The translations under genes were made by a program, and so were the position numbers. From Asparagopsis taxiformis (taxonomy: Eukaryota; Rhodophyta; Florideophyceae; Bonnemaisoniales; Bonnemaisoniaceae), in the NCBI GenBank assembly GCA_030407315.1, contig JALQPE010001962.1:62001-126000 (forward strand): a stretch of DNA of 64,000 nt, in the 5' to 3' direction. The notes under the pieces were generated by a model that searched no databases, was not told the origin of the DNA, and saw only the letters and a program-made list of their open reading frames with translations. Of this stretch, positions 14,787 through 47,335 are shown in pieces. The first letter of the stretch is position 1. The number at the start of each line of letters is the position of its first letter.

Positions 14787-14800
14787 CACAGGATAAGCAA
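14787..14800 (+). repeat. Left terminal inverted repeat of E1
   Basis: CACAGGATAAGCAA; perfect inverse of 37402-37415. Preceded by AA (14785-14786), the target duplication. Confidence 0.88.
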
Positions 14801-15749
14801 TTTTTTGAAAACCAGCAAATTTCATGGTCTGGACCTTTAGAAATTAGTGGAATGACAAACCATCAAAAAATCCCAGAAATTACCGGCGCCGTGCCATAGA
14901 TAAGTAGTGGAAATACCGTAAAGAATATAGTGGAATGAAACTGCGCCGTGGGAGTGGGTATAAGCACCGTGACATGGTGGAATTTTCCAGTACTGTACGG
15001 AAAAATAACAATGGAAAGGACAAGGACACGTCGCGTTGGTCATGACAGTGACCGGAGGTGGCATATTCCACGATTTTTATAATTTCCATGCTGGAATGAC
15101 GAAACGAGGGAACCATATGTGTGACAGTACCATGTTGGACTCGAACCATGAACTTGGATGGTTACGCCGGTCTGTAGTACAGATGGCATTCGTAGCAGTG
15201 TAGTGAGGCTAGAGTGGTGGACTGGTACTGACTGTTCCAACGCGCCATACCCTTCGATAGCGTCACGTTTTGGGCGTCCATGAGGAATAATATATCATAT
15301 GGAAGAGGCGAAATGCAGAGTGTATGACGTTAACTAGCTAATCTCGATATGGCCATTGTTGTACCATAGGTAGGGTACGGTCGAAAGAGTAGATAATTGT
15401 ACTTGAGTTTAGTTTCTGTAGTATTACTTAGTAAAGAATGGCACCATCTATGTTGATTTTTAGCACAGATACTACGGCATAGTTACTGTCGAAGTCGCTA
15501 AATTTTGTAATAAAGTCACTCCCGCATACACAAGATTGACCTGAATAGTGAGTTCCGGCCTGGCTTTAAGCGTGACTAGTATCTTGAACGCAGTAGTAGA
15601 GTGTTTGACAACTTGTATGGCAGTAGGGAACATGGTAGTGATTTCGTATCATACTATAAAAATGAAAAAATTGGACGTTACAGACATGGGTGAAGTAGTA
15701 TCTAGTGAAGAAGTCGACGAAGACTTGTCCTAAACAAAATTGCAGATAG
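14801..15749. other. Left subterminal region of E1; no gene seen
   Basis: Rich in short TGGAA/TTCCA boxes (TAGTGGAATGA at about 14850 and 14930, GGTGGAATTTTCC at about 14975) and a CACCGTGAC box (about 14967) that recurs inverted near the right end. These are candidate transposase-binding motifs. A weak frame at 15548-15733 could be a 5' exon of the next gene but is not supported by clear splice sites. Confidence 0.5.
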
Positions 15750-15800
15750 TGCGTTGTAGTATCTTTATTTCGTGGAGCAACTATAACTAGGCGTGAATCA

Positions 15801-17045
15801 TTGCGAATTAGGCGACAGAGCGAAAAAGCGAAAGCTGGCCGTGAGCGTGAGCGAGCAGCGGCCGTAGATGCACTTCCCTGTGTCGGCTCGCAAATAGACG
15901 TATGGTTCCAAGTGGGTGATGACGCAATATGGTGGAAGGCTACTGTTGTGGAAATCAAACTTCCTGAGCAGTATCCTGTCTGCAGTGGTAAGCCGTCAGT
16001 GGGAGACCGCATCGATGTAGACAGAGGAGATGGCGTGTACACGCCTGGTGTGGTGGAGCACAATGGACAGGATGTGGGTGATGCAATTGTGAGGTTGACG
16101 ACGGAGGAAAAGGATATTGCAGTGATGGAAGTATCAAAGTGGCGGTACTCGGATGCTGTGAAGCCAAGGCACGATGAAATGGTGGTTGCGGAAGGCAGAT
16201 TGTTATATGATGCTATCCCTGAAAGGAATTACCCTTGTGTTTCCTACGAACATGTAAAATTTCTGATGGGAAGTAAGTTAATGTCCGGGGGTCAGCCACC
16301 GACACAGTGGCGAAGGAGCAACAGAGAGGTTGTGGACTACGAAGCGGTGGGAGTAGAATTTCATGAACAATCAGATGGAGAATCTGAAGCGATATCACCG
16401 CATAGGAAGAAGCAAAAAGTGGAATCAGCACTTGACGCCAACACATACGGTAGTATGGAGACAAGGCTGAGAACACTAGAAAATATAATGCTTTCTGGAA
16501 ATGGTAGCGAGTGTCGGCTTGGTTGGAGCGGAATGGTTCGAAATTGTGGATCAACAGTATCAGCTGGTAAGGTTTTATTGATGCTCTTACAGCGTGCGGT
16601 AGAGAAAGTTGTGGAACAGGTTAATCGAAGCACTTTGTCAAACTCAGGTGGCGGCTACCCACATAGTGAGATTGACGGTGCATGTACAAGTGGAACGGCT
16701 ATTAGCGGACCGGTGCAGATTCCCATCTCATTGAGCACTGAGTTATTCCGGGAAATGCTAAAGGGAACAGCAGAAATCTATGGAGGGGGGTATTACAAAG
16801 TGTACCCAGGGCTTCACGCGGCAGTGGCTGGAACTGGTGGGGAAGCTTTGAACATTACGTGTTCCAGTTTTGCAACACTATCAGATCTGCTAGGATTAGG
16901 GCACCGATGGCGAACCGAGTGTCTGGTTCAAAGGCGTAACATCAGCAACTCGGAAGTGGAGGACAATGAAGAGTGTAGTTACATGAACGGTTCGGCGAGG
17001 TCATGTGTTTGCGGTTGTTTGGTACGATATTGTGCTCGGGAATGA
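15801..17045 (+). CDS. Unknown protein with a possible Tudor-like domain (E1 cargo)
   Basis: The frame is open from 15750 and has no ATG near its start, so a 5' exon or an upstream shift is likely. I start it at the first strongly coding stretch. The N-terminus is basic (RIRRQSEKAKAG). Residues about 28-60 read GSQIDVWFQVGDDAIWWKAT and resemble an SH3-fold Tudor/Agenet module, and VGDRIDVDRGDGVY follows as a possible second one. Then come a KKQK-type nuclear signal (about 16410), a short coiled coil and an unrecognised C-terminal part. Around 17000 all three frames are open and coding seems to continue one frame back at 17003-17476, so a one-base loss or small intron is likely. Chromatin reading is a guess from the domain look only. 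Confidence 0.45.
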   Translation: MRIRRQSEKAKAGRERERAAAVDALPCVGSQIDVWFQVGDDAIWWKATVVEIKLPEQYPVCSGKPSVGDRIDVDRGDGVYTPGVVEHNGQDVGDAIVRLTTEEKDIAVMEVSKWRYSDAVKPRHDEMVVAEGRLLYDAIPERNYPCVSYEHVKFLMGSKLMSGGQPPTQWRRSNREVVDYEAVGVEFHEQSDGESEAISPHRKKQKVESALDANTYGSMETRLRTLENIMLSGNGSECRLGWSGMVRNCGSTVSAGKVLLMLLQRAVEKVVEQVNRSTLSNSGGGYPHSEIDGACTSGTAISGPVQIPISLSTELFREMLKGTAEIYGGGYYKVYPGLHAAVAGTGGEALNITCSSFATLSDLLGLGHRWRTECLVQRRNISNSEVEDNEECSYMNGSARSCVCGCLVRYCARE

Positions 17046-17476
17046 TGGAAGCACAGTCGACATCTGTTGCAATTGGCAGTAGCTCATTCTGCAGTGCGGA
17101 AACAACATCAAACGTGTGGTGTCTAATTCGAAAAAGTAGTGCTGTGGTCCAAGGTGAATACGTGCACGGAATGGAGCTGCAGAAATGTCCTTTGACATGT
17201 GATGTGCACGGGAGGAGCGACGGTGAAGGGAGTCTGGAAGGGTGGAAAAGCGAAGGAAAGAAATGTTTCCGTATAGAATGGGAGCCTGCGATGCAAAGAA
17301 AGCGAGGAAAGGCGGGGGATGTACTGTGGGGATCTCTGAGAGTTCATATGCCGTACGTCGTATTCCGTGGTGTGGAAGAACCTTGTCGTATAGACAAGTT
17401 GATAACAGAAGATGTAGTGAACGACGTGGTAGGGTATAGTGCGTCAGAGAAAAAGGCAGAGGAGTACATTAAATGA
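17003..17476 (+). CDS. Likely C-terminal continuation of the 15.8-kb gene in the -1 frame
   Basis: Open frame of about 157 codons overlapping the end of the preceding one in the next frame, with coding-like composition (…CFRIEWEP…, …HMPYVVFRGVEEPCRIDK…). It ends at TGA 17474-17476, just before the convergent gene whose stop is at 17614. No domain recognised. Relation to the upstream frame (frameshift or intron) is undecided. Confidence 0.35.
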   Translation: MCLRLFGTILCSGMMEAQSTSVAIGSSSFCSAETTSNVWCLIRKSSAVVQGEYVHGMELQKCPLTCDVHGRSDGEGSLEGWKSEGKKCFRIEWEPAMQRKRGKAGDVLWGSLRVHMPYVVFRGVEEPCRIDKLITEDVVNDVVGYSASEKKAEEYIK

Positions 17477-17613
17477 TGCCAGCAGTTGGATGAATCAGAA
17501 ATACTTTAATGCAGATGATGCATGCATTGCAAAGCAGAACTAGTTGAGCGTTGGGACTTTTCCTAGAACTACTAATGAACCATACCGATATAAAGTTTCT
17601 AATCAAAGCAGTA

Positions 17614-19296
17614 CTACACATCAATTAGAGAAATACCAAGCTCGTCATCCTCCTGTAGAGGGACGCAATCAGGATTGGAAACGCGCCTGTCTGCCGTGTT
17701 TTCAAAGGAAAGTTCGGTTTGTACGATGCTTGAATCGAAACGTACAGACTCATATTCTTCAGCAGTGAGATTTCTCTTCTTTCTGATGATTCCGAACAGG
17801 CAATCACCTCCCATGAGGTAGTCCCGCAGCTCTAGATGCCCCCATGCAACTCGCAAAGGGAATCCATCTTTCCCGAATTGAGGTGTAGGTAACTTGCTGA
17901 GGGCCGCATTGAATAAACCTTGGAGACATATTGCTATCTGATAACAAGCTTGAATGGCATGGGGCTCATGACAAAGCATCTCCAGTTGTGTGCATTGACA
18001 GAAACTGCATAACAATATCATAGCTAAAGTAAGAAAAGAGAATGAACATACAGCCAATTTCTCCACCGGATTCTGCGCAGTTGTAATGTTTCCATTAGCG
18101 ATACCGCCGCTTACCTGAACTTTGTAAGTAACCTGAACGTGGAGCTCGGGACGGCTGAGAATGAAATTTGAGAAGATGGAATCATTTTTTGAATACACTT
18201 TCAGAGCGTCTTCTCCTGTTCCGTAAGCTTTCGACGTTGTCGGAATCGAGTCAGGTGGACACATGTCCGACGTTGACACATCAGAGTCGAGTGGAACAGC
18301 AATAGTTGCCTTCATATCTCGGTGGATGAGGAAGAATGCTTGCTTGACCAATTCCATTTTCATTTGCTTACGGGAACTGTTGAAGAACTGGGTGAGCTGC
18401 CGTAGAGCAGAGGTAATGATCGGAATGGATTGTATATCAGACGGTGACAGGTTGGGCATAGCGGAAGACGAAGAGGAGGACGTAGATGCACGGCGTGCTT
18501 CTCCTTTTGAACCAGACAGTCGCCGACGCTTCGAAGATCCAACCTGCAAACTCGTGGTCTGTTCTATGTTGCGTTCCGCCTCCGTGGGCATCGAAATATC
18601 CATAGCATGCAAAAGAGCGCGCTGCGAAATGTGCAGCCAAGATGGTTTATCGATGGGCACAATTGTTGCATTCCGTAGTGCATAATCTCTCGAGATAGTA
18701 TTGCTGTTCAAGTCCTCTTCTTCGCCGGGGTCCAGGATGCCGGCATTCCTGGTGGCCGAGTCCTTCCATCGTACAATTCTGTCATTCGCCATCGAAATAA
18801 ATGCTGTTCCGACAATAGAGCGTTTTAAGAATATATGCCGTTTCCCAACCGCAGTGCCAATTAGAGATTTCTTGGATTGTCTTACCTCTGCATTAGAACT
18901 GGAAGTCTGCGAAAACGACAATGCAGCAAGTAGCAATGTTGTACAGGACTTCACTTGCGCGGTTTCGTCAGACCTTGCATTCAAGTTCCTGAACAAACTG
19001 GGATCCACTGAAGTTTTGGTAAGCTCTGCAACGGTTCGGAAAGCGACGAATCTAGATGTCACATGCCTATTGTTGAACAAAGAGGACACTAGAGTGGTAA
19101 TTTGACCTGATCTTCTTGATCTCTCCTCGAGAACTACTGAAGGTACAGTGTTTGTCCCTGCAGCAGCCGAGGTCATGTACCGAATGCAAGCAAGCTCCAT
19201 TTCAATGGACGAAAGGGAGTCGCGCATATACTGTTCGAGGGATGCAAACTGTTCCTCAAACTTTGCAGACCTTGACAATGATAATTCATCTCGCAT
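17614..19296 (-). CDS. Unknown nuclear-type protein, about 560 residues (E1 cargo)
   Basis: Starts at ATG 19296. N-terminal residues 1-45 are charged and heptad-like (FEEQFASLEQYMRDSLSSIE), a probable coiled coil. A KRRRLSGSKGEARR signal with a Ser run (about 18470-18540) suggests nuclear location. A hydrophobic stretch at about 18000-18050 (FLTLAMILLCSF) is bounded by GTATGTTC and TTATGCAG and may be a 57-base in-frame intron instead of a membrane segment. The C-terminus, around WGHLELRDYLMGGDCLFGI, is well formed but unrecognised. It converges on the 15.8-kb gene and diverges from the methyltransferase gene. Not obviously related to the X coiled-coil protein. Confidence 0.55.
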   Translation of the reverse strand: MRDELSLSRSAKFEEQFASLEQYMRDSLSSIEMELACIRYMTSAAAGTNTVPSVVLEERSRRSGQITTLVSSLFNNRHVTSRFVAFRTVAELTKTSVDPSLFRNLNARSDETAQVKSCTTLLLAALSFSQTSSSNAEVRQSKKSLIGTAVGKRHIFLKRSIVGTAFISMANDRIVRWKDSATRNAGILDPGEEEDLNSNTISRDYALRNATIVPIDKPSWLHISQRALLHAMDISMPTEAERNIEQTTSLQVGSSKRRRLSGSKGEARRASTSSSSSSAMPNLSPSDIQSIPIITSALRQLTQFFNSSRKQMKMELVKQAFFLIHRDMKATIAVPLDSDVSTSDMCPPDSIPTTSKAYGTGEDALKVYSKNDSIFSNFILSRPELHVQVTYKVQVSGGIANGNITTAQNPVEKLAVCSFSFLTLAMILLCSFCQCTQLEMLCHEPHAIQACYQIAICLQGLFNAALSKLPTPQFGKDGFPLRVAWGHLELRDYLMGGDCLFGIIRKKRNLTAEEYESVRFDSSIVQTELSFENTADRRVSNPDCVPLQEDDELGISLIDV

Positions 19297-19525
19297 TTCA
19301 GCTCAAAATGATGGGATGTTCCACGTCCGGGAGAGGAGAATTGAGGTGCACGAGCAAATTGATTATCTAACGGGAAAGATAAATAGAAAGACTCGAGGGA
19401 AATGTCTGTCGTAAGCAGACCAATCATGTAACGGACAAGTGCAATGGTAGTGCCGTTACGAAATATGAGGGCTGTAACGGTCCTCGGCATACTGAGAAGC
19501 AGTGAAACCAGCAATGTAGGCTCGA

Positions 19526-19649
19526 GTTGAAATTTGGTAATTTTTATGGTCTGAAATTGCTGCAGTAAAAAGCGATCTACCATTGTGCACTTTGCTAGAT
19601 CGCTTTTTACTGCAGTAATTTCAGGCCGTAAAAATTACCAAATTTCAAC
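19526..19649. repeat. Hairpin H1 of the E1 family
   Basis: Inverted arms of about 53 bases running from GTTGAAATTTGG to a stem with CTGCAGTAAAAAGCGATC. The loop contains GTGCAC. Arms differ at about three positions. Confidence 0.88.
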
Positions 19650-20192
19650 TGTACAAACCATGACGGCCAACAATACATGACGTAGTATTTTACCACCGCT
19701 TATTCTGCTCAGAGACTGTGAAGGTGCGGCACTGGGAAACTCGGTGAGCTATTCGGCCGTATACTTTGGTAATACACGACCGGGAATTTGTACGTAGCAG
19801 AGCACATTGGTGCCCCGCAATGTTAACGACAGCAAAGCTAACTTTTTTGCTCTGTGCATTCCAATATGCGCAGAGTGCAATAAGCAGAGCAAGTGATAGC
19901 CCCCTTACTCTGCAGCACACATGTATAACATTGCGCAATTTTACACACTAGTGCACTTGTCAGCATGCTGAACAGCAGTACGACGCCATCATCATGCGCT
20001 GGAATGTATCGTAGGACGTCCGCGAAGTTAGTTAAAAGTCTAGACTAGTTTAACGATCGATATCCAAAACTAGGAATTCCCAGCAAGATTTATTCGTAAA
20101 AGAAGAATCTGATGATTATCGTTCCATAAACTAGTCAGACGTTTCAGTTGGTTAGTTCTGGAATAAAGCATGAACGATTAGAGCGGTGCTTT

Positions 20193-20310
20193 AAATTTGG
20201 AAATTTTTCATTCTGAAATTACTGCAGCAAAAAGTGATCTAGCCAAGTGCACTTTGCTAGATCACTTTTTACTGCAGTAATTTCAGAGCGAAAAAAATTA
20301 CCAAATTTCA
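20193..20310. repeat. Hairpin H2 of the E1 family
   Basis: Same design as H1 with AAATTTGGAAATTTTT outside, AGTGATCTAGC inside and GTGCAC in the loop. It lies about 360 bases upstream of the methyltransferase start. Confidence 0.85.
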
Positions 20311-20667
20311 ATTGTGAATCGAGAACGAGTCTTGCTACTATTATTTCTCTACTATCTCCTTGCCATTCGCGCTCGTTGAAGTTAGTTTACTGGCACAGAG
20401 TGCAAGCGACTTACGCACCCCTTCCAAACTAGTACAAACCCCTACTCTAATCCCTGCAATACAACTCTGGCTTCTGTCGCCATCCTCACGTCCCCTCGCG
20501 AGATATCGGCGGCGTGTCGGTTCCAGAATTTCCGATTTCGAATTTATTGGCGCCGCGTGGACTTTGGAGGGCGTGGACTTCCAGTCCGCCCTTTGATCGT
20601 CGAAAACTTTCCCCACTCATCTTTTTCCATTCTCCCTGCTCTCCCTTTTCTCTTCACCTCACAAGTA

Positions 20668-23600
20668 ATGGCGGAAGTACGACGGCGACATGGGCTCGTC
20701 GTAACACGCAGCGAAAATGGACCAACAGAACCGCATGATTTGTACGGAGACGGAACAATTCTCTGGGTGGATCCGGCGCGCGTTGTTTCAATTCCAGCGA
20801 TTGAAGGGGCTGCCACTCCTGCCTCTGATATTCCCCGCGGAACGCACCTAAACTTCGATGCTCTCTATCTGTACGGTACCATAGCGGAAAACGGGGACGT
20901 TACCCTGGTTGGAGGTATGGACGTGTGCGAAGAGGTATTGTCACGCCCCCGAACCAAGACTTCAAGGTATTTACTCCGCATGTGCTATGAGTCTATTTCC
21001 ACGAAACCGCATACGCTTGCCTTGATTCTGTATCACATTCTGGAGAGCGAAAGGACAATTCCGTTCTACGAAAGTGTGTCAATTGTAGCTTACATGCGGG
21101 ACTGCTGGCATAATAGAGAGAAGGACGAAGATAACGTTCCACTCGAAGAACGTTCACTCTCAGCGTTCCGAAGGGCTGTGGGCAGTCTGTACAGATTCAA
21201 TCTACCATCTCTAGAAGCCATCGTAATCGTTGACAGGTGGTTTTCATATGCGTACCACCGCCACACGTTTAACATTGTGCAATCAGTGCGGAACTTCACG
21301 AGTACTGGTGATGATGGCAATACAGAGCTTGATACTAGAGTATGGGATCTGTTTCTTACCAGCTGTGGGATGCAGGATTTGTCGGTATCGTTCTTTATTC
21401 CGGTGTACATCAATGAGCGTGATGAGCCAAGGGGTGTAGAAATTTCAACGAAAACCTCCCAGAGTCCTCGTCCCTCAGGTCCAGTGTTCTATGAATACCA
21501 AAACCATAACACACAGGAAAGGACAGCTATTGGACGAGATGCGTACTCCAGGCAAACTCTGGCTTGTCAATTCTTTGTTTCACACGTTCAGGAAAGGGCT
21601 ACAGATCATGGTAACTGGGCAACTCCAAGATATTCCCCGTCTTTCCGGAAAGTTGTATTTCTCATGGGATTGATTCAGATGGATCGAGACTGGAAGTTGC
21701 GAGTAGAAACGCGCCCACGACAACGGACAAGAACCAGGTCTGCGGCTAGATTGACAGCGCTAATCAAAAAGGACAGTCCTTTTACGGCACAGCGTCTGGG
21801 ATATGGGGTTCATCAGGTTCTGGCAGCATGGGATGAGTTGGCAAAATCCTTGGGGTCAGGCGGTGCAGAAGAGCTCCTACAACCTTACCTTCTTTACGAC
21901 CAGAGACTGTTTACGTACCACGTCCTGGACTCGGAAAATAGGGGCTTTTCACCGCTTCGAGAGCTGAAGACCTTGTTGCATGGCAGAGGAGCTGTTCGAA
22001 GAGTGCAACACTCGGCAAGCATTTCAAGTGCTGCTGTCCATCGTACGCTGCTGCAAGACGCTCAGATGCGCCTCTGTGCAAAGTCATTCTGGGAACACTT
22101 AATGGCAATATGTCGCAATGACAAATTGTTCGACCTATCTGTCTCGGCTCCGCAAGATATACCGTTCATACAGAGCTTCCAGCCGTCCCCCGGTTCCCCG
22201 GTTTCCGGGAGGTTCACGACTATTCCGGCACTGGCGATGGTGGAAAGGCAGCTCACAGCGTTCAGCCTCACAGAAGAGCCGCAATCAACGCCCGACCCAA
22301 ATGAGGAGCTGTTCAGAGAAATGGAGACGACAGCTTCTCCAGTGCGGGAATCTTCGGTAACCCGACAGGTGTCGGAAGCCGTGGCCGCGAACCCGACTAA
22401 GCGTAGGCGTCTAGAGGTCAGTACGATCGGTGCAGCAAGCTCAGGGGCTAACCCGGCTAGCAGCAGCACCGGTCCAAACGAAGCTGATGTGAACTCCATG
22501 CGGGTCGAAGAGGAAGTGTTAATTCCTGCGGAACTGGAGAACATGAAAGGATGTTTCCTACATACATTCAACTGTAGTTTCCGAGACCTTCTGAAAAACT
22601 ACGACGCCGTTGACAATCCTGGTAAGCCGCAAATCCGGGAAGGTGCTCAGTTGGTCCTCACTGACCCGCCGTACAATACTAGGCGTATGTCCGGCAGAGG
22701 AAACTCTGGTTACGATGTCCTCCGTCAGGAAGAAATCGAAGACACGGTAGCTGAAATTTCCAAGGTGACGCGCAAGGGTGGTCATGTTCTCATATTCACA
22801 TCTGCTGCTCTGTTCTACAATTGGGTTTACGAGCTCCGCAAAGTGAAGTACTCTGCCGGCTATCCTATGTTTGCCGTTGATTCGCAGCCTATTGTGTGTA
22901 CTCGGAGTCCGACACATTTCACATCCCCCCGTATCGTATCACGACAAGTTTGTTGAATATGGTGGAGTTGGTCGTACATGCCACCAAGCTCGGCAAGGGG
23001 AGAGAAGGCTGGGGGATGGTTAATTACCGAAATGCCGGATACATACCTTCTAGATTCAAGGCTTGGACAAATGTCATCGACAACATCCCGCGGATCACTG
23101 CGTCGGAGACGGTGAAATATATGGACAAGGACAAGAAGAAGGTTACGTTGCGCCCCGAGCAGAAGACCGTCGCTCTCATGCAAGAGCTCATTGGGCGTTT
23201 CTCAAACCAGGGCGACCTGGTTGTTGACATGTTTGCTGGAACTTTCTCCACTGCTGTTGCATGCCTGACAATGCACCATGGTCAGTACAGGAGGTTTGTC
23301 GGGTGTGAGAAGTTCAAGGATTGCTACGAACTGTCTCTTCCTAGAGTCAACGTCGCATTTCTCCACCAGGTCTCTATTGGGAACTTTGCCCAGCAGTCCA
23401 CGACTGCCCTACAGCAGCTGGCTTCTGCTCGTCTGGGAACTTCGGAAGAGAGTTCATCATTGAAGACAACCTCAAAAGTGCCCATTTCAACCAAACTTCC
23501 GCCCCACCTCATCAGCTTTCTTACTGGCATCTGGTGCATTCCGGACCAGCACAAGGAGTTGACAGACCAACCCATTGATAAGTGGCCACAATCGCTGCTG

Positions 23601-24152
23601 GGTTTGTTGTCTACCGTGGATATTAAAACCCTGCTGTCAATAGACGCGATGGCACACAATGTATACGTCGCAGCGTCAACGATTCCTTCGGCTGGTGACG
23701 GTCTGTTTGCAAGAGTGGATATTGATCCTGGAGATATCGTAGGGTACTATTTCGGGTCTGTGGTTTACAAGGATTTGTACAAGGCGAAGTTGAAGACTTT
23801 CGGTACTGGACCTACTTCCTTCTCGATTGAGCGTTTCCAGAAGTACGCTGTTCAAATTAAGGATGCAAATGTGAAATGTCTGATGCCATCCACGTCTGCA
23901 AGTCCAATCTTCATTGTTCCATTCGAGTATTGTGCGGCATCGAAAATCAACGACCCAACGTTTGTGGACCCAGCGGAGGGAACTGAGCGTCCGTCGCGTT
24001 CTGCTAATGTTAGTTTCTCTTCCCCCATACAAGAAGTTCTTGATGAGACCTCTGTATCAACCTATCAAGTTGTATGCGTCACTGCCAATGTGCCCATTTC
24101 AGCTGGCTCAGAGTTATTCATCGAGTACGGACACGAATACTTTTCCGTATAA
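20668..24152 (+). CDS. Amino-DNA methyltransferase fused to a SET domain (E1 copy; one frameshift)
   Basis: Start chosen at ATG 20668 (CAAGTAATGG). The frame upstream has no ATG. About 1160 residues once one frameshift is allowed. The N-terminal 600 residues are unrecognised, followed by a KRRR-type signal (about 22400). Methyltransferase motif IV is LTDPPYNTRR at about residue 666, and motif I, VDMFAGTFSTA, lies downstream at about 852. That DPPY-before-FxGT order is the beta-type N6-adenine/N4-cytosine class. The last 160 residues form a SET domain: AGDGLFA, GYYFGSVVY, KINDP…SANVSF, GSELFIEYG; the usual NHSC is INDP here. The frame changes inside a C6 run at 22913-22918, consistent with one lost C. 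A homolog is at 54574-57777. It would mark DNA and histones together; substrate bases and lysine are unknown. Confidence 0.75.
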
Positions 24153-24299
24153 CCAGTACCCTGTCTGGAGAAATGTTGAGAAGTAAATGTTTTCCCATCT
24201 TCCTTTAAACTCTGTTCATAGAATTGTAGTTCAAGTACGTGTATGTGAGCCAGGAGGGAAATCCTTGCACAGGTCCCCTAAACGACGTAAAATACGAGC

Positions 24300-24422
24300 G
24301 TAAAATTTGGTAATTTTTTTGGCTGTGAAATTACTGCAGTAAAAAGCGATCTAGCTTGTGCACTTAGGTAGATCGCTTTTTACTGCAGTAATTTCAGAGC
24401 CAAAAAAATTACCAAATTTTAC
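24300..24422. repeat. Hairpin H3 of the E1 family
   Basis: Near-perfect arms GTAAAATTTGG…CCAAATTTTAC with GCGATCTAGC and the CTGCAG core; loop TTGTGCACTTA. About 150 bases after the methyltransferase stop. Confidence 0.9.
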
Positions 24423-25390: not shown

Positions 25391-25398
25391 GATGCGCT

Positions 25399-25519
25399 TA
25401 AAATTTGGAAATTTTTTTCGCTCTGAAATTACTGCAGTAAAAAGTGATCTACCTAAGTGCACAAAGCTAGATCACTTTTTACTGCAGTAATTTCAGAGCG
25501 AAAAAAATTACCAAATTTA
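25399..25519. repeat. Hairpin H5 of the E1 family
   Basis: Arms TAAAATTTGGAAATTTTTTTC…CCAAATTTA with AGTGATCTACC; loop TAAGTGCACAAAG. About 490 bases before the ParB-like start. Confidence 0.88.
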
Positions 25520-26009
25520 ATGCCCATCCTCCATTCTCTCCATGACCGTTCAATATGAGTTCTGATTGATTAGGACGCAACCGGCGGATATTATGCGCAT
25601 TAGTTGTTATATTGCGCTGTCCCACGGTCCTGTTTGGACAACCTTCAAGTGCATACCTTACACGACCATCCACTTCTTCTTTCTCGGCTCCTACTCATCT
25701 GCTACTCTCTCTGCTTCTTCTGCACCTGAAAAGCAATCCCGATCGAGGACTTCCCCCTACGAGACGCACTGTTCCGCTCTCTCTCTCTCACTCCCTACAC
25801 CAATCTCTCCACCTCTACCTACCTCTCTCTGCCAACCTTTCAGGGATCCTCTCTACCACTTCATTGCCAATCTCTCTGGCACTATCCACCACACTCTCCC
25901 TCCCACTGTCTCTCTAAAGCGACAGTCTATCTCTCCTCAACCATCTCTATTCTCCTATCCCCCTCTCTTTCTCACTACACTTCCGCGCTACCCACTCGGC
26001 AAAAACAAC

Positions 26010-28085: not shown

Positions 28086-29551
28086 GAGAGAAGACTCCCA
28101 TATCTCTGGGCAAGGTCAAGAAGCCCTCCAAGAGTACCCGCCGAGGGGAAAAGAGGAAAAGGGACGATACCTTTAGTCCGCTTCCGGCCCGGGTTACTCG
28201 GTCGAAGACCAGAAGTGCTGCCGTTGCAGAGCAGCTCATCGCTCTTGGCAGCACTTCTTCCCCTCCTCCCTCCCTTCCGCTTCCTGGTCAACCCCCGTCT
28301 TCGGGTGAGAAGGAGCGTGACAATGAAGGTGAGAGTGAGGAGGAGGAAGAAACCCCCACGAAATCGAAGGTGACTTCGAAGGGGTTTCTGGTCCACCGGT
28401 ACGAGGACGAACAGCCGAGTCCACCTCCCCACCTCCTCGAGAATACTTCCGTGGCCGAAGCTGAATCGTTCGTCCGTTCAGTTTCGAGCCTACTTCATCC
28501 TGAACACCGCTCTGGGTTCTACTTGACGGAAGGGGAGGTGGAGGAACTGAGGGAGGATATTGACTCCATGGCTGGTTCTTCGTCCATCGAGAGGGCTGTG
28601 TATTTCGAGCGGGCAAGGGCTAGTATTGATTCTGATGGATATGTTGTCCTGGAGAACATACTAGGAGCTAAGGAAGTGCGGTCTAGTATCCACGACCTTC
28701 TGGCAGCCTTTGCGAAGAAGTTCTCGGAAGACGAGGAAGGTGCGTGGATTTCGATTCTGAATTCCGGTTCTCGAGGTAAGGATGCAGAAGGGGGGCCGTC
28801 TCGGCAGCGGTACATGACCCCCTGCAAGGCCGTTGTCGAAGACCTGGACACGCTTGCGTCTGGTCCAATCGCTCACGATAAGGTTTCTGTGGATGTTCTG
28901 CTCGCTATTATAGCAGAAAAGCTCCACTTAGAAGATTCCGTTTCGTCATTGAAGGGATTCAAGGAAGGCTCCAAGCTCAGGTTCGGTAGAACAGGTCTTC
29001 GGATGCTGCTCACAGGGTCGGGCTGTGATCGTCAGATACCTCATCTGGACTTCACATACCCCGGTCCACCGCCAGGGGAACCCAACCGATACTACGGTAA
29101 ACCTGCACCAGATCCTGACTATGCATTCATTGCAACTGGTGCAGTGGGTTCCCCGATTCTGGTACGACCTCGCAGCCATACCTTCCTCAACTCCCCACGC
29201 AAGGCCTTCCTGGACGTCTGGCCCCACCTCGTTCCCAAGTTGGTCTGGATACCTCCCTTCTCTGTTTTTGTCTCTCGTGGAGACTTGGAACATGCAGGTC
29301 CAGGATGGCAGGACCACGATTTCGTGAAGACCAGGCTTTCCAACACTGGAATGCCGTATGGTCACCATATTCGAGTCCACACAATGGCTGCGCGTGTCTC
29401 CTCCGAGCTCGTCAACGACCTAGTTTATGCGCCAGGGCTGGGTGACGACCCCAATGCTCTGCCGGAGCCCTACGATTTCGATCACGACTACGTGTCGGAT
29501 AGTGATAAGGAAGAGGAAAGTAGTAGCGAAGAGTATATTACAGTTGAATAG
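28034..29551 (+). CDS. 2-oxoglutarate/Fe(II) dioxygenase-like protein, probably fused to the ParB-like gene
   Basis: The frame is open from about 27962 without a start codon. Its first ATG is 28568, but the basic region before it (KRKRDD, RVTRSKTRS) also looks coding. The C-terminal domain has the iron ligands of the cupin-type family: PHLDF (H-x-D) at about 29040, the distal His in GDLEHAGPGW at about 29285, about 84 residues later, and then an Arg in HHIRVH at about 29365 for 2-oxoglutarate. This is compatible with the AlkB/TET-JBP/PhyH superfamily; I cannot say which. The tail is acidic (SDSDKEEESSSEE). Overlap with the ParB frame and a -1 shift suggest one protein of about 1180 residues, ParB - zinc - dioxygenase. 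DNA or histone demethylation or base oxidation is inferred, not shown. Confidence 0.6.
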   Translation: MEQDKGEAGVKDKRSTVGEKTPISLGKVKKPSKSTRRGEKRKRDDTFSPLPARVTRSKTRSAAVAEQLIALGSTSSPPPSLPLPGQPPSSGEKERDNEGESEEEEETPTKSKVTSKGFLVHRYEDEQPSPPPHLLENTSVAEAESFVRSVSSLLHPEHRSGFYLTEGEVEELREDIDSMAGSSSIERAVYFERARASIDSDGYVVLENILGAKEVRSSIHDLLAAFAKKFSEDEEGAWISILNSGSRGKDAEGGPSRQRYMTPCKAVVEDLDTLASGPIAHDKVSVDVLLAIIAEKLHLEDSVSSLKGFKEGSKLRFGRTGLRMLLTGSGCDRQIPHLDFTYPGPPPGEPNRYYGKPAPDPDYAFIATGAVGSPILVRPRSHTFLNSPRKAFLDVWPHLVPKLVWIPPFSVFVSRGDLEHAGPGWQDHDFVKTRLSNTGMPYGHHIRVHTMAARVSSELVNDLVYAPGLGDDPNALPEPYDFDHDYVSDSDKEEESSSEEYITVE

Positions 29552-29775
29552 ATAGCATATGAACTATAACTTGCTCTAAACTGATATTTCTCTTGTTTCC
29601 ATGTTCTCCCACATTCCTATAGTCTACTTGTAGTTTGTCAGAATCTCCTTCCGTTGATAGTCCTCTGCCCTCTCCCCTTCTGGTGCATGGCAAGGTAAAG
29701 AATGGTAGTATACTAGTTGCAACCAGTGTGCCTTCGCAAGTCGCGAAGGGCGCTGGACCCCTGGCGTTGAGGTCC

Positions 29776-29899
29776 TAAAATTTGGTAATTTTTTTCGCTC
29801 CGAAATTACTGCAGTAAAAAGCGATCTAGCAAAGTGCACCAACCTAGATCACTTTTTACTGCAGTAATTTCGGAGCGAAAAAAATTACCAATTTTTTAC
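29776..29899. repeat. Hairpin H6 of the E1 family
   Basis: Arms TAAAATTTGGTAATTTTTTTC with CGCTCCGAAATTACTGCAG; loop AAAGTGCACCAACC. The stem is slightly mismatched (GCGATC versus AGTGATC on the two sides). Confidence 0.88.
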
Positions 29900-30660
29900 A
29901 TCTCCCGTTCCATGGACACCGCGTTTACAGACGTGCTCAAACCAGGGAACCTGGCCACGTAAGCACGGTTGAGCTATCACTGTTTCAACAAAGTTAGTCA
30001 TGTTGCAGCACTTCACAGAGCACAACATTATTTTGAAATCACTAGTTTGTACAACATTCCCATAGGTAAACGACCCATTCCGAATTCTGACTAGACATAG
30101 CAGCCACTAAACATACGTGTAAGACTTTTGAATTCCTGCTGCGGCTGGAATGCAATATGCACTATCCAAGTCTTTCCAAATAGGGGCTATCCCATACGTA
30201 GGGTACATGAAGTGAAGCTTTAAAGAAGTTTGGTCTATTTTACCTGGTAGTTTGTCTCGTCGACTTCACTTCCTAGATCATCTATATATAGACATGTAGT
30301 ATACCGCGGAATGGGTCCTATGACAATAATACTCCTAATGACCTATTGAGATTACCCTGTACGTACCTTCCCCTCTCGATATAACACATTAGAGTCGTAT
30401 ACGACTAAAGCTACAACTATGATTACAGAAAAGGATAAATGATGCCCACTGAGTACAAAGTACAGCATACACCTTGATGTTAACGCGTTCAATGTGCTCG
30501 CATAACTTCCTCTCCAAGGTTGGGAAGTGAACGTGCGTGTATAACAGCCTCCGAGGAGGTGATGTCCCGAGCGCCCCAGGGAACTCAAGCGCTGCATATG
30601 GGGCTAATTCCGGTGCAGGTTGTTGGAAAAGCCCAAGTTCGGCGCCCGGAAGCTCAGGGA

Positions 30661-30792
30661 GATGTTGAAATTTGGTAATTTTTTTCACTCCGAAATTACT
30701 GCAGTAAAAAGTGATCTAGCAAAGTGCACCAACCTAGATCACTTTTTACTGCAGTAATTTCGGAGCGAAAAAAATTATCAAATTTCAACATC
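30661..30792. repeat. Hairpin H7 of the E1 family
   Basis: Arms GATGTTGAAATTTGG…CAAATTTCAACATC, the longest stem of the set; loop AAAGTGCACCAACC identical to H6. Confidence 0.88.
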
Positions 30793-31011
30793 TCCCGTTC
30801 CATGAATGATTGCTGTTTATGGGTAGTATAGTCGTATGTGCAACTGAGCAAGGTCATAGTTAAACTATTAGACTGTAACGGTCGACTTATTCATGTTCTC
30901 CCTTTCTACAGCTTTACATCTGTGTGTTTCGTTTCTATGCTCACTACAGCAAGGCCTACACGCGGTCCCTCACACACATATCAGAGCCTGCAAATTGTCT
31001 GTCATCGAGAC

Positions 31012-34000
31012 ATGGCAAGACCGAGAAAGTCTAGGACTGGCCTACGACTACGATACAACAATGTATACCCTGGTCGTAATCGGGCTCGGCGTTCGACTAC
31101 CAGAACAGTTTCTGACCCTTTCTCCGTCCATCACATGGGCTGGAGACCAATGCAAAACCCTCTTCCTCCCCCACAAATAGACCATGACAGCACTTTGAAC
31201 ATTCCCCAGAATCCAAATGCTATCAACCACCGGCTCCCAGATGCAACACCCCCTTCCTCCCCTGTCCTGGATACGTCTACAACTGGGAACAATAGCTTGC
31301 ATGCTATTGCTCTGGTACCCATGGATACCACTGTCTCTCTGGAGTACGCAAAAAGCGAAGAGGGAAACACCCTGCCACCTCCAGCAGTTGAAAACCTATC
31401 CACCATTCCCGACCATTGTGATATGATACTTCCTTCTAGGAGTGAACCTGCTTCTGCTGTTGCGACAGTTCCTACTGAATTCCATCACGATAGTTCTGAC
31501 GAACCCGATGATGTATTCTCAGAACATGATACCGTGTCGAATGATAAAGACCTGCTACTACAGGAGGAGATAGAGCGAAACTTCTCATCTCTTCTCCTTT
31601 CATCTTCAATACGTCCAATCCAGACAAAGCTCGCAATTACATGACACAATGGACTACGCTGTATACTGTCGCAAAGCTGACAGGCTCCACAAAAAGTACT
31701 GCCGCTAGCTTGCAGGAAGATCGTGTTTTGTTCGATTTCGCGAGAAAAGGCTCAACGAATAAACATGTTCAGCAAGGTCTGCCTCATTATTCGACAATAG
31801 TGCGTAAGGTGAGACCGTGGCTATTCTACAATGCATGGTTGCGTTCAGAAACCGTTTATTTTCCTGTAAACGTAGAGCGCAGTGCAGCCCGTGTAGCTTC
31901 CTCCGCAATTCTACGAAGAAGCCGGGTCGAACGAGCAACAACAGGCCAATCAGCACCTGTACTTATCGTTCCACCAAGCGAATATGCACGAGCAGACATT
32001 ACTACGCCACAAATATTCGACCTTGCGTGGCGTGATAACACACAATTGGATGCTTCCGACTCGGATGAGTTACTAAGTTTCCATGGTAATGTGTGTACAT
32101 CCAGGATAGGAAAATTCAGAGAGTACTCTCTGAAAGGACAAAACTATACTCTGAGGGCAGAGGAGGATAAGGATGGCTCTCCGGTTCCTGCTTTCGGGGG
32201 TAGTATTGTGGAGCTTCGAGTGATATCAGGGCGGCACGCCTCTCCTCTAGATCCTACTCTCAGTTCCCTTTTCCAACAGGAATCACTATCTTCCAGCCAT
32301 GAGTCGTTCAAAGCTCTCACATCTTCTTCGTGGATTAACTCTGGTGCCGCATTTCATAGCAGGCTTTCGGTCTCCCCGCATTCATATGGGTCCGCCTTCA
32401 TCCTTCAGAAAGAGTCGTTCCGGGAATATGCTCGGCCGGGTGATCACCTGACAGTTTTATCACCCAGTCCTGAGTGCAACCCTACTCAAAATTGTGGTAT
32501 ACAGTTCTTCATTGGGCTTGTCGTCAGCTCTCCCGGACCGCCAGGCCCATCACAAAAACTGCTCTTTCTCGTCAACTCTGAAGGGCATTACAAAGTTGTC
32601 GGCGGAACTCGTGCAATCAATAATGTCAAGTTATTGAAACCAGGCACGAGCTCCAGCCCCTTTCATCCTACACATCTCCGTGGGGTTCTCAGCTGCGGTA
32701 CCACATACTACGTCTATCCATTTCTTTTATACTGCGATGACTTCAATGAAGCCTCTGGTAAGAAAGGGAGTGCTGGAGGATGCTATATGCTCCCAATGGG
32801 TCTTCCGCTGGACTGTCGCCGGAACAGTTCTGCTGTGCGCGTTATCGGTGTCACAGGTCCTGGTGTTAGTACAAACCATATCCTTCGACATATCTCTAGA
32901 GACATTATTCAAGGATGTACGTCGGGGTTTCGTGATGTCGATCCAGACGGCAATGAATGTCTAATTTTCCTGGACTTTATTGGTTTCGTATCGGATTATC
33001 CTGCCTGTTCTCATGTGCTGGATGTCATGGGGCACAACGCAGACTGCCCATGCCATTTGTGTTTCTTTGTAAGAGGGGGGAAATATGGGAAGAACTCGCA
33101 GTTTGGCTACGACACCCGTTTACATTCGAGCTCTGATACACACTTTCGCACATCCGAGCGAACAGCTGCTGTTCAGTCATCGGAAAGTTCTGCAAACATC
33201 TTGAAGTATCTGGGTTTGAGAACAGTGCAAAATATCACAGACACTCCATTGCATCTCATTGAAAGACTACTTCATGAAGCTAGGTCCAAAGGGCTGGTTC
33301 CAACCGGGACACCACTCGGAAACGATGGTCTACGAATCCCTGTCGTGCCTGCTATTCTGGACCCATACCGTTCGACGTTTGTTGGAATTGACCATCTCCT
33401 CCATGGACTGGCAAAGGATGCTCTGGACAATGCTTTTCCAAGCTTGCCTAATGATGGTGTGGGAAGGCTGGCCGACAGGTTCATGGTGGATGCCCTCCGT
33501 GTATTGGGTCTCGCAAATCAGAACAAGATATATAACTTCAACGCAGGTGAAACTCATACAATGGGAATCTCGGACAGATTTGCAGTTCTCCTCGTCGCCG
33601 AACACTGCTTCAGGTCTTCTCTGAAATTCCAATCGCAGACTACGAGGTCATCCGAAGGTAGCGGTTCAAGGTCACTCCAGGCTTCTGAAGAGCAACGCCA
33701 TCTGTCTCTCGAACTTGTTCGTCTCCTTTCCTCTATTTCTGCAGCTTCATAACTCCTACCACGAAACAATATCGACGGTTCTGAGGCAGTACAGAGAGCT
33801 ACAGGAAATTCTGCGCACAACAGTCTCCGTCGTCTGCAGCAGCTATCGAAAGAATATGCTACTCTAGTGGATGACCTGCTCAAGACTGTTCGTACCAGAC
33901 AGCGGAGCACAGCGGTCTCGAAGAAACGGAAGATGCAGACAGAAGGTATAGTAACGAATGATAATGACCACATTGAGATGGAAAACAAGACTGCTGGATT

Positions 34001-35056
34001 CCGGGCAAGGAAGATGCTTGACAATAAGCCAAACTTGCACCGTCTCATTGAGGCATTTGAACACACTGTTCCTCTGCTCGGACACGCTCGCCAGGTAGCT
34101 GAGCTATCATTCGAAGCAACACATCAACAAATGAAACGAGGTCTAGAGCATTCCGGAGGTGCTGACAGACAGTTGGATGCTATGTTAGCGGCACTCGGAA
34201 ACTATTGGAAAGGAAGCCTCCATCTTGCTTTGAAAAGTTTCTCCAATTCTACTCCAGCATCTGTGGAGAGACAATGTTCTAAACGGTTTCTCCTTCGTGT
34301 TCTATTCGGACGGGAGCACTGTAAATCCATGGAGAACCTCCCGGCTAGTACGCTGCATGACCTCTGTCAAGAACCCCTTCTCGAACATTTGAATAGATCT
34401 TCTTTACCATTCTTCTCTTCTCCATATTCATATTACTCGTGGACAGGAGTTCCCTCTTCATTACCACAGCAGGATTTTTCCTGTGGCAGAATTCGGATGC
34501 AGTCATGCTTCGTGGAAAACCTTGCAAGGGAGCACGTCTCAGTTCTGCCCACCCTGCCTGTGCAGCTTCGCCCTCTGCTGCGTCTCGGGACTTTTCAAAG
34601 CCACAAGAAATAGCTTCTGGCTGTGTAGTACAAGCTTGCTACTCAGCTTCCCCGTCTTCTAGAATTCTACAGAAGACCTGTTCACCTTCTTTTTGGGCTG
34701 TTACCACCGTATTTGACCTGATTTTTGATGGAAAAATTGCTTCACCTGGAAACGTTTGCATAGACGAATCTCACCAGGAAAACCTGTCTCCACCTCACGC
34801 TATTGTTTTTCCAGTTATCAAGCAGAAGTCCTCCCCCACTACGTTTGCTCCGAACACCGATTCCGGCTCCTGGTTTCTCCCTCTCACTTCAGGGGTTCGT
34901 AAGGTTGGTCTCCTCCACAATTGTAGCCCTTCATTATGTTCTGTGGAGCAAGGCACTTCGAATGGAGGAATTACGCATGGAGGTCCTTCGTTTATGGATG
35001 GTGGTTCCTTCTCTATTTTTGCAAGAGCAGATGGATATCCGCCAAGGACTGCATGA
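31012..35056 (+). pseudogene. CMC/Plavaka-like transposase of E1, disrupted
   Basis: Presumed to recognise the CACAGG ends and move E1. Start taken at ATG 31012 (MARPRKSRTG); 30937 is an in-frame alternative. Family features: PFLLYCDDFNEASGKKG (about 32715), a LPLDCRR segment, LIFLDFIGFVSDYP then CHLCFF (about 32960-33070), DHLLHGLAKD (about 33390), and SFEATHQQMKRG (about 34110), matching the E-x2-H…K region of the group. Breaks: a -1 shift near 31575-31600, where the first frame ends at 31644; a single in-frame TAA at 33750-33752, with the same frame open on both sides; and another -1 shift near 34480-34600, after which the C-terminus continues to 35056. Homologous to, but clearly diverged from, the X transposase. 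This copy seems unable to make the full protein. Confidence 0.7.
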
Positions 35057-35324
35057 TACTCTAGGGTCTAGTACATACGCTTTTATACCATATTCCTTCC
35101 CGTAAACAAACTTCCTCATATTGTAGCGTTTCCGTCACATACATCCACCTTGACATTGGCCATACTTATGTCCCTTGTCCCAAAACCTGTGAGACACTAT
35201 GTTCTATTCTATGTAACCATCTCTAATTCCTCGTCTATACCATTCATGCTTCTTCCAGAGCTTATCCTTTCCTTGAACTGGCTCAAGCCTGAACCAGCTT
35301 CCTCAGGGCGGAACGTACCACAAT

Positions 35325-35440
35325 AAAATTAAAGTAAAATTAGGTTTCTTTTACTGCAGTAAAAACTGATCTACCAAATGCATCTTCCTAGATCACTTTT
35401 TACTGCAGTAACTAGTCATTTTTTTCTAATTTTTCATCAT
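35325..35440. repeat. Hairpin H8, diverged member of the E1 family
   Basis: Core arms TTACTGCAGTAAAAACTGATC and its near-inverse are kept; the loop has ATGCAT in place of GTGCAC and the outer arms are largely degraded. Downstream of the transposase. Confidence 0.7.
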
Positions 35441-35499
35441 TGGCTCCTCAGCCTGCAATACACGTTTCCGCTCACAAGCGTGCAGCTCCACGCCAGCTG

Positions 35500-35537
35500 T
35501 AATGAAATAGAACACTACCTAGTTTTCTATTTCATTA
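35500..35537. repeat. Small hairpin followed by short tandem repeats
   Basis: TAATGAAATAG … CTATTTCATTA is a stem unrelated to H1-H8. It is followed by four or five imperfect repeats of GTCCATGACGTG up to about 35590. Confidence 0.75.
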
Positions 35538-37401
35538 CGTGTTCATGACGAGTCCATCTCGAGTCCATGACGTGTCCATGACGTGTTCATAGATCATCGA
35601 TGATTTGTTTCTGATTTGTCAGTACGAAAAGCGCGCGCTTTATCACTACGCAAGTGAAATACGCGACCTCTGGGCTCACTCTGCAGCAGTATTTAAGCCT
35701 TGCGTCACGCCGGGCAACATCACCAGCACCTGTCGCTCGGAGCACACCACCTACGCAGGATGGGGCGGCGGAGTGCAACCACATCCCTACGGATGTGATT
35801 GTGCCCCGCCGCCTCCATCCTACGATAAGGTTTTCCAGCTCATTTAGTCTTTTAGCCATTCCTCCCATTGTCTTTTTCTGCGGTTCTTCGTTGTTCTTCT
35901 GCTAACAGACTTTTCTTCCTTTCCTACTTTCTGTTTCGTCTTTCTCCAGGGCTACTGTCATTACTACGTTTTCTCACTTCTAATTGAGCTTTTGGCATAC
36001 CGTTTCTAGCACTAACCACTGTGTCATCCACTTCTTTCCATCTATGTGCCAGCAGAAGTTTCTGGGTTCTCTACAATCCGCTTACTCAAGCTCTGGCTCC
36101 ACTATCAACGGTATGTTCTCTCGCTTCTAATCATGCTTCAAGCGTTAATGAAATTACATTCCTAGCACTAACCATTGATTCATCTATTCTTTTCCTTCCA
36201 GGTGCCAACAGAAATTTCTGGCTTCCCCTCATCTATCTTTTCGTGCCTATATGTATTTGTAGTTACTTTATGTACAGCTAGTGTTTTGCCGTTTAGTATC
36301 TGCCATGGTGGCATAGTTCAAAGTTCCGTAGTGCAGTGTACAGATGATCTTCATGTCGTTAAACTTTTGGCGTTAGCTGCCCATTTACCTATTCCATATC
36401 CACTACACCATATCGTAAATCTTGCGTACCCGCTACTGGCTGCAACCTAGTCTAATTCATCGTCCCTATGCCGATTTCCATTCTACCTAGATATCGTTTC
36501 AGTCAGACCTATCCGTCCTGCAGTTTCTCCGCAAAAGTGTGATGTGCCGCCCATTCTACCTTTCAGTTTCTACCCAGAGCGCCCACCGGTACAACTACTC
36601 TACCCAGTGAACATGGTCCACGCCAACCCGACGGTACAACCACTATATCCAGTGGAAGTGAACCGTACCCATTACAGTGCTCCACGGTGGAATAATACCA
36701 GTGTCACGAGCAGGTGTTATAATAGAATATATCCGGGCTTTACACAGTACTGTAGTTTGGAAACTAACCGCGCTTTGCCTTGGGCCGTACATGCCCAGTC
36801 AATGGTCCCTTTCCAGATTATCGTTTGGCCAGTTCCACAAGTCAGCTTGGTCACGTCACATAAGCAAAAAGTCACCTACTCTGGAATTATTCCAATGAAT
36901 ACAATAATCATATTTTGGTCACCATCCATTCAGCGAGTGCTGCTTACGCCTGGTTTCAGACACCGGAGTGTCACGGTGTGCCCATTATATTTTATAGTTT
37001 ATTTCTACGAATCGCTCTGCACCTTCCACCACATATCGCAGTCACGGTGCACCCCATATCTAACTATACCCATATACAGTACTGGTTCCATTCCAACCAT
37101 CCGCTCCTGCGTGACTTGGCCCGTTCTAGTCAACCCGCCGTCCTGCTCATATATGGACGTGGTTCATTTCCATCCCTACGTGTCCTTCCGTACATGGTTC
37201 AGCCATCACCTCACGGCCACACCATAGTTCTGCTTGGTTCCTGCCTACTGTAAAACAAAATCGCCGTGCTGGTCTCAGCCCATGATTTTTTACATTTTTT
37301 TCGATGGGCCTTATCCAAACGTTGGGGATGGGCGTTCCGCTAAAATATGGTGACTAGTTCTACTGTACGATACGGCATTTTCCATGGAATATTCTCTATT
37401 T

Positions 37402-37415
37402 TTGCTTATCCTGTG
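37402..37415 (-). repeat. Right terminal inverted repeat of E1
   Basis: TTGCTTATCCTGTG; inverse of 14787-14800. Followed by AA (37416-37417), the second copy of the target duplication. Confidence 0.88.
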
Positions 37416-41251: not shown

Positions 41252-41432
41252 ACTCAAGGCCCAATTAGTGGAATCGACCTTTGCTTTTATATTGGCTAGT
41301 CTATACCTTTCTCAACTCGGTCCTGCTCTTGTAAGACAGTGACCTTGTCCTGATCGGTATAGCGTTATAGCCTTTACATATCACCGAATAAACTCATCGG
41401 ACCTTTGGTTTTCTCATCAACTCTATCCACAA

Positions 41433-47330: not shown

Positions 47331-47335
47331 TTCCC

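What the first reader, a model, noticed from the sequence alone, without database searches (positions are those of the whole stretch)
14787..37415. A 22.6-kb DNA transposon carrying a DNA methyltransferase-SET, a ParB-like and a 2OG-dioxygenase-like gene
Seen: exact ends (14-bp CACAGGATAAGCAA inverted repeat, AA duplication) that restore a conserved copia motif when removed, and cargo genes between the ends. Known: CMC elements use CAC ends and short duplications; TET/JBP genes have been linked to fungal KDZ transposons. Inference: E1 carries both a writer of DNA/histone marks and a possible eraser, perhaps to mask itself, time its own movement or act on host chromatin. I do not know a described element with this set.
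Basis: partly seen in the sequence, partly recalled or inferred. Interest (0 to 1): 0.93.

Follow-up and report, generated by a model that had tools for sequence, protein, structure and literature searches.

The report
Large jumping gene carrying DNA-methylation enzymes
This is one worn copy of a large jumping DNA element, present in many copies in one fungus-like genome, that carries its own DNA- and histone-modifying enzymes and has long mirror-image DNA repeats between its genes, which suggests that the element may mark its own chromatin.

Summary
E1 (14787-37415) has 14-bp inverted ends and an AA duplication, and interrupts a copia element whose empty site occurs 48 times in the genome. 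The exact end occurs 225 times, control 0.

Related copies carry the same genes: a beta-class (adenine-type) DNA methyltransferase fused to SET, a ParB-like protein with a dioxygenase-like C-terminus, two unknown genes, and a transposase whose model matches RAG1/Transib. Three of the genes were tested for selection and evolve under constraint. So the cargo is core, not chance. E1 itself is worn; long open frames exist elsewhere.

Two gene cassettes differ in orientation among the three lineages read, with order unchanged. The palindrome core is lineage-specific (CTGCAG or CTCGAG). A second, 26%-identical MTase-SET gene in this window is also flanked by hairpins, of unrelated sequence.

Best reading: a CACTA/RAG-like DNA transposon encoding a DNA/chromatin-marking system that acts on its own palindromes. 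The transposon and conserved cargo are shown; self-marking is inferred. New variant of a known kind (transposons carrying epigenetic enzymes).

The parts
14785..14786 (.). target-site duplication, left copy (AA)
   Evidence: the empty copia site with a single AA occurs 48 times
14787..14800 (+). left terminal inverted repeat CACAGGATAAGCAA
15750..17045 (+). gene g5 (tudor-like by eye only); E1 copy shortened, common full form 575 aa
   Evidence: 97 scored matches in 3 identity classes in own genome
17614..19302 (-). gene g4, 562 aa, function unknown
   Evidence: E1 vs E2 dN/dS 0.14; present in C438; its whole-genome search did not complete
19525..19650 (.). palindrome P1
20204..20295 (.). palindrome P2
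20386..24152 (+). MTase-SET gene: unknown N-terminal region, beta-class DNA methyltransferase (DPPY), SET; frame broken in E1
   Evidence: 99 scored matches in own genome
24300..24422 (.). palindrome P3
24892..25014 (.). palindrome P4 (inverted copy of the P3 region), followed by a short inverted remnant of the MTase-SET 3' end
25391..25528 (.). palindrome P5
25566..29551 (+). ParB-like / Cys-His-rich / 2OG-dioxygenase-like gene; frame split in E1
29777..29896 (.). palindrome P6
30657..30796 (.). palindrome P7
30832..35056 (+). transposase gene (RAG1/Transib/CMC-type DDE; possible C-terminal BAH-like domain in the E2 copy); frame split in E1, about 1400 aa in open copies
35351..35411 (.). palindrome P8 (core only)
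37402..37415 (-). right terminal inverted repeat
37416..37417 (.). target-site duplication, right copy (AA)

Best explanation
E1 is a decayed copy of a large (about 21-26 kb without large nested inserts) cut-and-paste DNA transposon of the RAG1/Transib/CACTA type. SHOWN: many copies with the same ends; the same gene order (g5, g4, MTase-SET, ParB-2OG, transposase) in the elements read from three lineages (in the third, C438, only the 5' part of the transposase is left); evolutionary constraint on MTase-SET, ParB-2OG and g4 between E1- and E2-type elements; long palindromes at many gene boundaries, with a lineage-specific core. INFERRED: the element encodes a private marking system. The MTase-SET protein methylates adenines in element DNA, most likely at or near the palindromes, and methylates a histone at the same place. 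The ParB-like protein loads at or spreads from the palindromes and carries an oxidising domain that trims or converts marks. The transposase may read the resulting chromatin through a BAH-like domain. The net effect would be to keep the element transcribable and its ends accessible despite host silencing, and to tell own copies from other elements. Because a palindrome is the same in both directions, recombination between two of them can flip the gene between them without damage, which would explain cassette inversion with conserved order.
Confidence: 0.46

Rival explanations
1. The modification enzymes are an anti-silencing kit for the whole element, but the palindromes have nothing to do with them: they are bidirectional terminators, insulators or promoter elements for the transcription units.
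For: Palindromes lie just outside most internal genes in the elements read. The second MTase-SET gene in the window has flanking hairpins of quite different sequence, as expected if hairpin shape rather than a recognised sequence matters.
Against: The inner core is kept in E1 and E2 and changes as a set in C438 (CTGCAG to CTCGAG), which suggests sequence recognition. No transcript data.
Confidence: 0.32
2. The cargo acts outward: MTase-SET modifies host or rival-transposon chromatin, for example to silence competitors or host defence genes.
For: The same genome holds other elements with DNA methyltransferases: a second MTase-SET at window 54577-57828, and a methyltransferase next to a DUF7869 gene in the insert inside E3's MTase-SET. 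This would fit an arms race.
Against: The palindromes sit in the elements themselves, where a self-target is simplest. No evidence on targets.
Confidence: 0.12
3. The genes are passengers trapped by chance.
For: E1's own copies are frame-broken.
Against: The genes recur in three lineages, with long open frames, and MTase-SET, ParB-2OG and g4 evolve under constraint at dS about 0.7-1.2.
Confidence: 0.02
4. The palindromes are small foldback or MITE-like elements that spread secondarily into the transposons and were merely carried along; cassette flips are ordinary ectopic recombination between such repeats.
For: Palindromes within one element resemble each other. E1 has an extra inverted P3/P4 pair with a remnant of the MTase-SET 3' end, and C438 has runs of four and three. 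In the capped listings, 4 of 19 contigs and 5 of 24 show no other part of the element in the listings (compared by eye), so some may stand alone.
Against: They stand between genes in E1, E2 and C438, while most spacers between them have diverged beyond alignment. 15 of 19 and 19 of 24 listed contigs do carry other parts (same calls).
Confidence: 0.14

Closest known systems
TET/JBP-carrying fungal DNA transposons (Kojima 2025, PMC12730594; outline, sections 18 and 26 and passages read)
   Same: DNA transposons in fungal genomes carrying a chromatin or DNA-modifying enzyme, thought to counter silencing; CMC-type members (EnSpm, Plavaka) included.
   Different: There the cargo is a TET/JBP dioxygenase. 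A word search of the text found no ParB and one mention each of SET domain and palindrome; in the parts I read, no transposon carrying a DNA methyltransferase is described. Here the dioxygenase-like part is fused to a ParB-like domain, and the transposase gives no Plavaka hit.
CACTA/EnSpm-Mirage-Chapaev-Transib (CMCT) and RAG-like transposons
   Same: CAC ends, short duplication, transposase model matching RAG1, BbRAGL and HzTransib.
   Different: 2-bp duplication rather than the 5 bp of Transib/RAG (recalled); no Pfam transposase hit; about 1400-aa transposase with a possible BAH-like C-terminus; about 21-26 kb with five genes.
Bdelloid N4CMT (Rodriguez et al. 2022, PMC8885841; passages read, one from the abstract; authors recalled)
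   Same: A bacterial-type N6_N4 DNA methyltransferase fused to a chromatin domain in a eukaryote, linked to transposons.
   Different: N4CMT is a host gene with a chromodomain making 4mC, tied to silencing of transposons. Here the enzyme has DPPY (adenine type), is fused to SET, and is carried by the transposon.
SET-carrying HarbingerS and MuDR transposons of oomycetes (only as cited in PMC12730594)
   Same: Transposons that carry a SET histone methyltransferase.
   Different: Other superfamilies; no fused DNA methyltransferase mentioned there.
KorB/ParB operator systems of plasmids
   Same: ParB-type fold; several dispersed palindromic sites across one element (plasmid side recalled).
   Different: Works-like analogy only: no binding test, no ParA found among the genes scanned, and a DGLHRR motif rather than GERR (motif labels recalled).

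Membership tests
CMC/RAG-type DDE transposons | transposase with the RAG1/Transib RNase-H-type fold | tested here: met
CMC/RAG-type DDE transposons | terminal inverted repeats beginning CAC | tested here: met
   one end of C438
CACTA-like CMC | 2-3-bp target-site duplication | tested here: met
   AA in E1, TG in E2; E3 GT/GC does not match (2 of 3)
Transib/RAG proper | 5-bp target-site duplication (recalled) | tested here: not met
   the empty site shows 2 bp only
Plavaka | match to PF18759 | tested here: not met
   no hit with the E3 transposase or 5 homologs, although the same genome has 123 PF18759 matches; hhalign E 0.076 over 67 columns
Plavaka | ends TGT..ACA or CATCA..TGATG (PMC12730594 section 18) | tested here: not met
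   ends are CACAGG..CCTGTG
TET/JBP-carrying transposons | recognisable TET/JBP dioxygenase domain | tested here: inconclusive
   HLD...H...R by eye; no Pfam hit, PDB profile search no dioxygenase, model too poor there
beta-class DNA adenine methyltransferases | PF01555 with DPPY before the FxGxx motif | tested here: met
   motif order read by eye
beta-class DNA adenine methyltransferases | adenine methylation activity | not testable with these tools
   no modification data or assay
ParB/sulfiredoxin superfamily | ParB N-terminal fold | tested here: met
ParABS/KorB systems | specific binding to palindromic operators | not testable with these tools
   none
Starship giant transposons | DUF3435 tyrosine recombinase captain (recalled) | tested here: not met
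   no such Pfam hit among the ORFs of E1, E2 and E3 scanned; transposase matches RAG1 instead

The most novel reading that the evidence does not exclude
A eukaryotic transposon-borne self-identity system: each lineage carries a private palindrome code (CTGCAG-type or CTCGAG-type core) written by its own adenine methyltransferase-SET enzyme and bound by its own ParB-like protein, so that the element builds and inherits its own chromatin domain, much as plasmids use KorB/ParB with dispersed operators. Genes sit in orientation-neutral, palindrome-bounded cassettes that can flip without breaking the element, and another element with the same enzyme class, using unrelated hairpins, has arrived at the same layout.
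Probability: 0.2. Interest if true: 0.95.

Novelty: new variant of a known kind. Interest (0 to 1): 0.82.

Why it matters
Transposons that carry chromatin enzymes are known, mostly with a single eraser (TET/JBP) or SET enzyme in what I read. This family carries a DNA-methyltransferase-SET fusion together with a ParB-fold protein and a RAG1-like transposase, with long palindromes between the genes. It makes a concrete question testable in one organism: whether a eukaryotic transposon marks its own DNA with adenine methylation. It also bears on where bacterial-type methyltransferases in eukaryotes come from, since relatives of the enzyme occur in the red alga Pyropia and in many environmental sequences.

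Tried and rejected
Tried, with little result: the transposase gave no Pfam hit, no PDB sequence hit of note (41; profile 109: none) and no Foldseek match of note; only the VIA second look found RAG1. The 2OG part stayed unconfirmed. A viral-contig scan with the MTase alignment kept 80 loci, 22-52% identical over part of the domain; tblastn against phages gave 25-28% in the 20 rows listed of 380 records. Rfam: no hit. g5 as a tudor protein: by eye only, PDB search no support. A first, stricter palindrome pattern found 18 places. Literature searches: 16, 64, 65, 68, 97, 98, 123, 125; no title or abstract start listed showed a transposon with this gene set, but only open-licence PMC papers are searched.

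Considered and dropped: chimeric A/C elements at C77 and C1897 (rather a C-type element nested next to an A-type MTase; 113, 128). An intron in E1's MTase-SET (rather a frameshift, since a 99.5%-identical copy reads through; 58). Active phase switching of cassettes (orientation fixed within lineages; 113).

Not answered: the whole-genome search with the ParB-2OG protein (11, 71, 75, 83, 87, 94, 96, 101, 103, 107, 112, 114, 116, 119, 126, 136, 140), with g4 (72) and with the second MTase-SET (137); the machine was busy each time. So their copy numbers are unknown; ParB-2OG and g4 were seen in the elements read. Copy counts may be inflated by allelic or duplicated contigs; the 9 ends read in the first 8 end-loci have 9 different flanks (27).
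Full report
OBSERVATION. The element runs exactly from 14787 to 37415 (22,629 bp). Both ends read CACAGGATAAGCAA inwards and AA stands on both sides. The host genome (G000, 141.5 Mb, 3156 contigs; window = C1837:62001-126000) holds 96+129 exact copies of this 14-mer and none of its reversed control. The joined flanks with one AA occur 48 times with 1-3 mismatches, control 0, so the target is a repeated copia element and the duplication is 2 bp. The flanking ORFs have copia domains. That it is a fungus is my inference from 123 Plavaka matches, a family described there from fungi (PMC12730594, section 18).

COPIES. I read three more elements. E2 (C1000:38370-64223, 25,854 bp) has TG on both sides. 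E3 (C384:1979-38178, 36.2 kb) is E1 at 97-99% with a 13.7-kb insert inside MTase-SET, and its flanks do not match (GT/GC). C438:11001-37000 belongs to a third lineage with the end CACAGCATAAGCAA, of which I read one end; that variant occurs 46+49 times, control 0. MTase-SET gave 99 scored matches of 3083 candidates, which I sort into lineages A/B/C as 43/34/22; 42 of 99 lie in open frames of 1162-1255 aa without stops by my count. The transposase gave 61 scored matches of 1679 candidates, 27 of 61 in frames of 1390-1415 aa without stops by my count; all 61 are 92-100% identical to E1's, so lineage-C transposases are not among them. g5 gave 97 scored of 390. The ParB-2OG and g4 genome searches did not complete. 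Some contigs look allelic or duplicated, so these counts are not counts of independent insertions; the 9 ends read in the first 8 end-loci have 9 different flanks.

SELECTION AND MOSAICISM. E1 vs E2: dN/dS 0.216 (MTase N-terminal part), 0.084 (MTase-SET C-terminal part), 0.141 (g4); E3 vs E2: 0.174 and 0.269 (two ParB-2OG fragments); dS 0.68-1.21, one pair each. g5 was not tested. The transposase differs by dS 0.03 only (dN/dS 0.35). So the cargo is old and constrained, and the transposase part was probably exchanged between lineages. E1 itself is worn: MTase-SET is frameshifted against a 99.5%-identical copy, 35 of the 99 matches (E1 included) align from residue 1 of the shifted frame and so probably share it, and the ParB-2OG and transposase frames are split.

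PALINDROMES. E1 has seven near-perfect palindromes of 92-140 bp and one core-only copy; MTase-SET, ParB-2OG and the transposase each lie between two of them. Four that I folded (three from E1, one from C438) give long hairpins with z -16 to -23. E2 has five: MTase-SET and the transposase lie between two, while ParB-2OG has one close by and the next about 5 kb away, past 4.6 kb without an E1 counterpart. C438 has seven: four between the transposase piece and ParB-2OG, three between ParB-2OG and MTase-SET; none was found between MTase-SET and g4. A 22-base arm motif (<=1 mismatch) occurs 739+718 times in the genome, control 0. In C438 the inner core TTACTGCAGTAA is TTACTCGAGTAA in all seven; that version occurs 145+153 times, control 0. 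Of the listed contigs, 15 of 19 and 19 of 24 also carry other parts of the element in the listings, 16 of the 24 a C-lineage part (compared by eye, listings capped). Arms agree with their own partner (mean 0.87, 13 palindromes) more than with arms of other palindromes (0.80; 61 of 312 comparisons reach the within-mean). Of the four E1 spacers between palindromes, three match nothing in E2 or C438 and one only by about 90 bp of MTase-SET 3' end; pieces beside genes and parts of E2's extra 4.6 kb (in C438) do match. CTGCAG is 26 vs 5.1 expected in E1, 24 vs 5.7 in E2 and 9 vs 5.9 in C438; CTCGAG is 8, 7 and 20; GATC is below expectation in each.

CASSETTE FLIPS. With the g5 end on the left: E1 = g5+ g4- MT+ PB+ TN+; E2 = g5+ g4- MT- PB- TN+; C438 = g5+ g4- MT- PB+ TN+ (TN only its 5' part). 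Order is the same; two cassettes differ independently. 51 of 99 MT matches have a g5 on the same contig within 9.5 kb: same strand in 21 of 21 A pairs, opposite in 16 of 16 B and 12 of 12 C pairs; the other two (C77, C1897) are C-type g5 copies next to an A-type MTase, best read as nesting. MT against transposase: 8 of 8 A same, 10 of 10 B opposite; one C case (C207, same) involves a transposase beyond that element's end. So flips are rare events, not a running switch. E1 keeps an inverted P3/P4 pair and a short inverted remnant of the MTase-SET 3' end beside P4, a plausible scar.

GENERALITY. A second MTase-SET gene lies in the same window at 54577-57828 (-), 26% identical to E2's over 865 columns. 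It is flanked on both sides by copies of an unrelated hairpin repeat (53554-53589; 58229-58264; a third near 59537). No other gene of E1 was found near it by tblastn. The insert in E3 carries a methyltransferase (8.7e-12) next to a DUF7869 protein (2e-49), with a DG-H-R motif by eye and no ParB family hit; no palindrome of E1 type was seen in it.

MECHANISM. Shown: a mobile family with a shared gene set, palindrome placement, lineage-specific cores. Inferred: the enzymes act on the element itself and the palindromes are their address. The closest functional analogy is KorB/ParB with dispersed operators. Rivals are given separately. Literature was judged from PMC12730594 (outline, two sections, passages) and PMC8885841 (passages); other papers only as search listings.

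Noticed in passing
window 54577-57828 (-), hairpins 53554-53589, 58229-58264, about 59537-59572, 58806-58848: A second MTase-SET gene in one open 1084-aa frame (26% identical) flanked on both sides by copies of an unrelated hairpin repeat; its element ends were not found.
   Followed up: partly
C384, insert between E3 positions 15172 and 28905 (L045:3077-6157 and 6420-8930): A 13.7-kb element with an apparent 8-bp duplication nested in E3's MTase-SET; it carries a DNA methyltransferase (with a DG-H-R motif by eye) and a DUF7869 protein, so possibly a second transposon type with a DNA methyltransferase.
   Followed up: partly
C438, positions 3312-3884 of L133 (C438:14312-14884): A second stretch 30% identical to the dioxygenase-like part of ParB-2OG (E 1e-17), without the ParB-like part.
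   Followed up: no
window 1-10023 and 41360-51238: A block of about 10 kb with a copia element and Plavaka-like sequence lies in inverted copies, mostly 99-100% identical, on both sides of E1; origin, or possible assembly artefact, not tested.
   Followed up: no
P0056, P0062: MTase relatives in the red alga Pyropia; P0056 shows a SET-like C-terminus by eye. Whether they sit in transposons is unknown.
   Followed up: no
C1897:54047 and C77:14569: A C-lineage element appears nested just beyond an A-lineage MTase-SET gene.
   Followed up: no
C86:15061-15629, C730:15639-16207: Two ends back to back about 555 bp apart, at two loci.
   Followed up: no
P0067: The distant ParB-2OG relative has H-F-A where the others have H-L-D, so its iron site may be lost or altered.
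   Followed up: no
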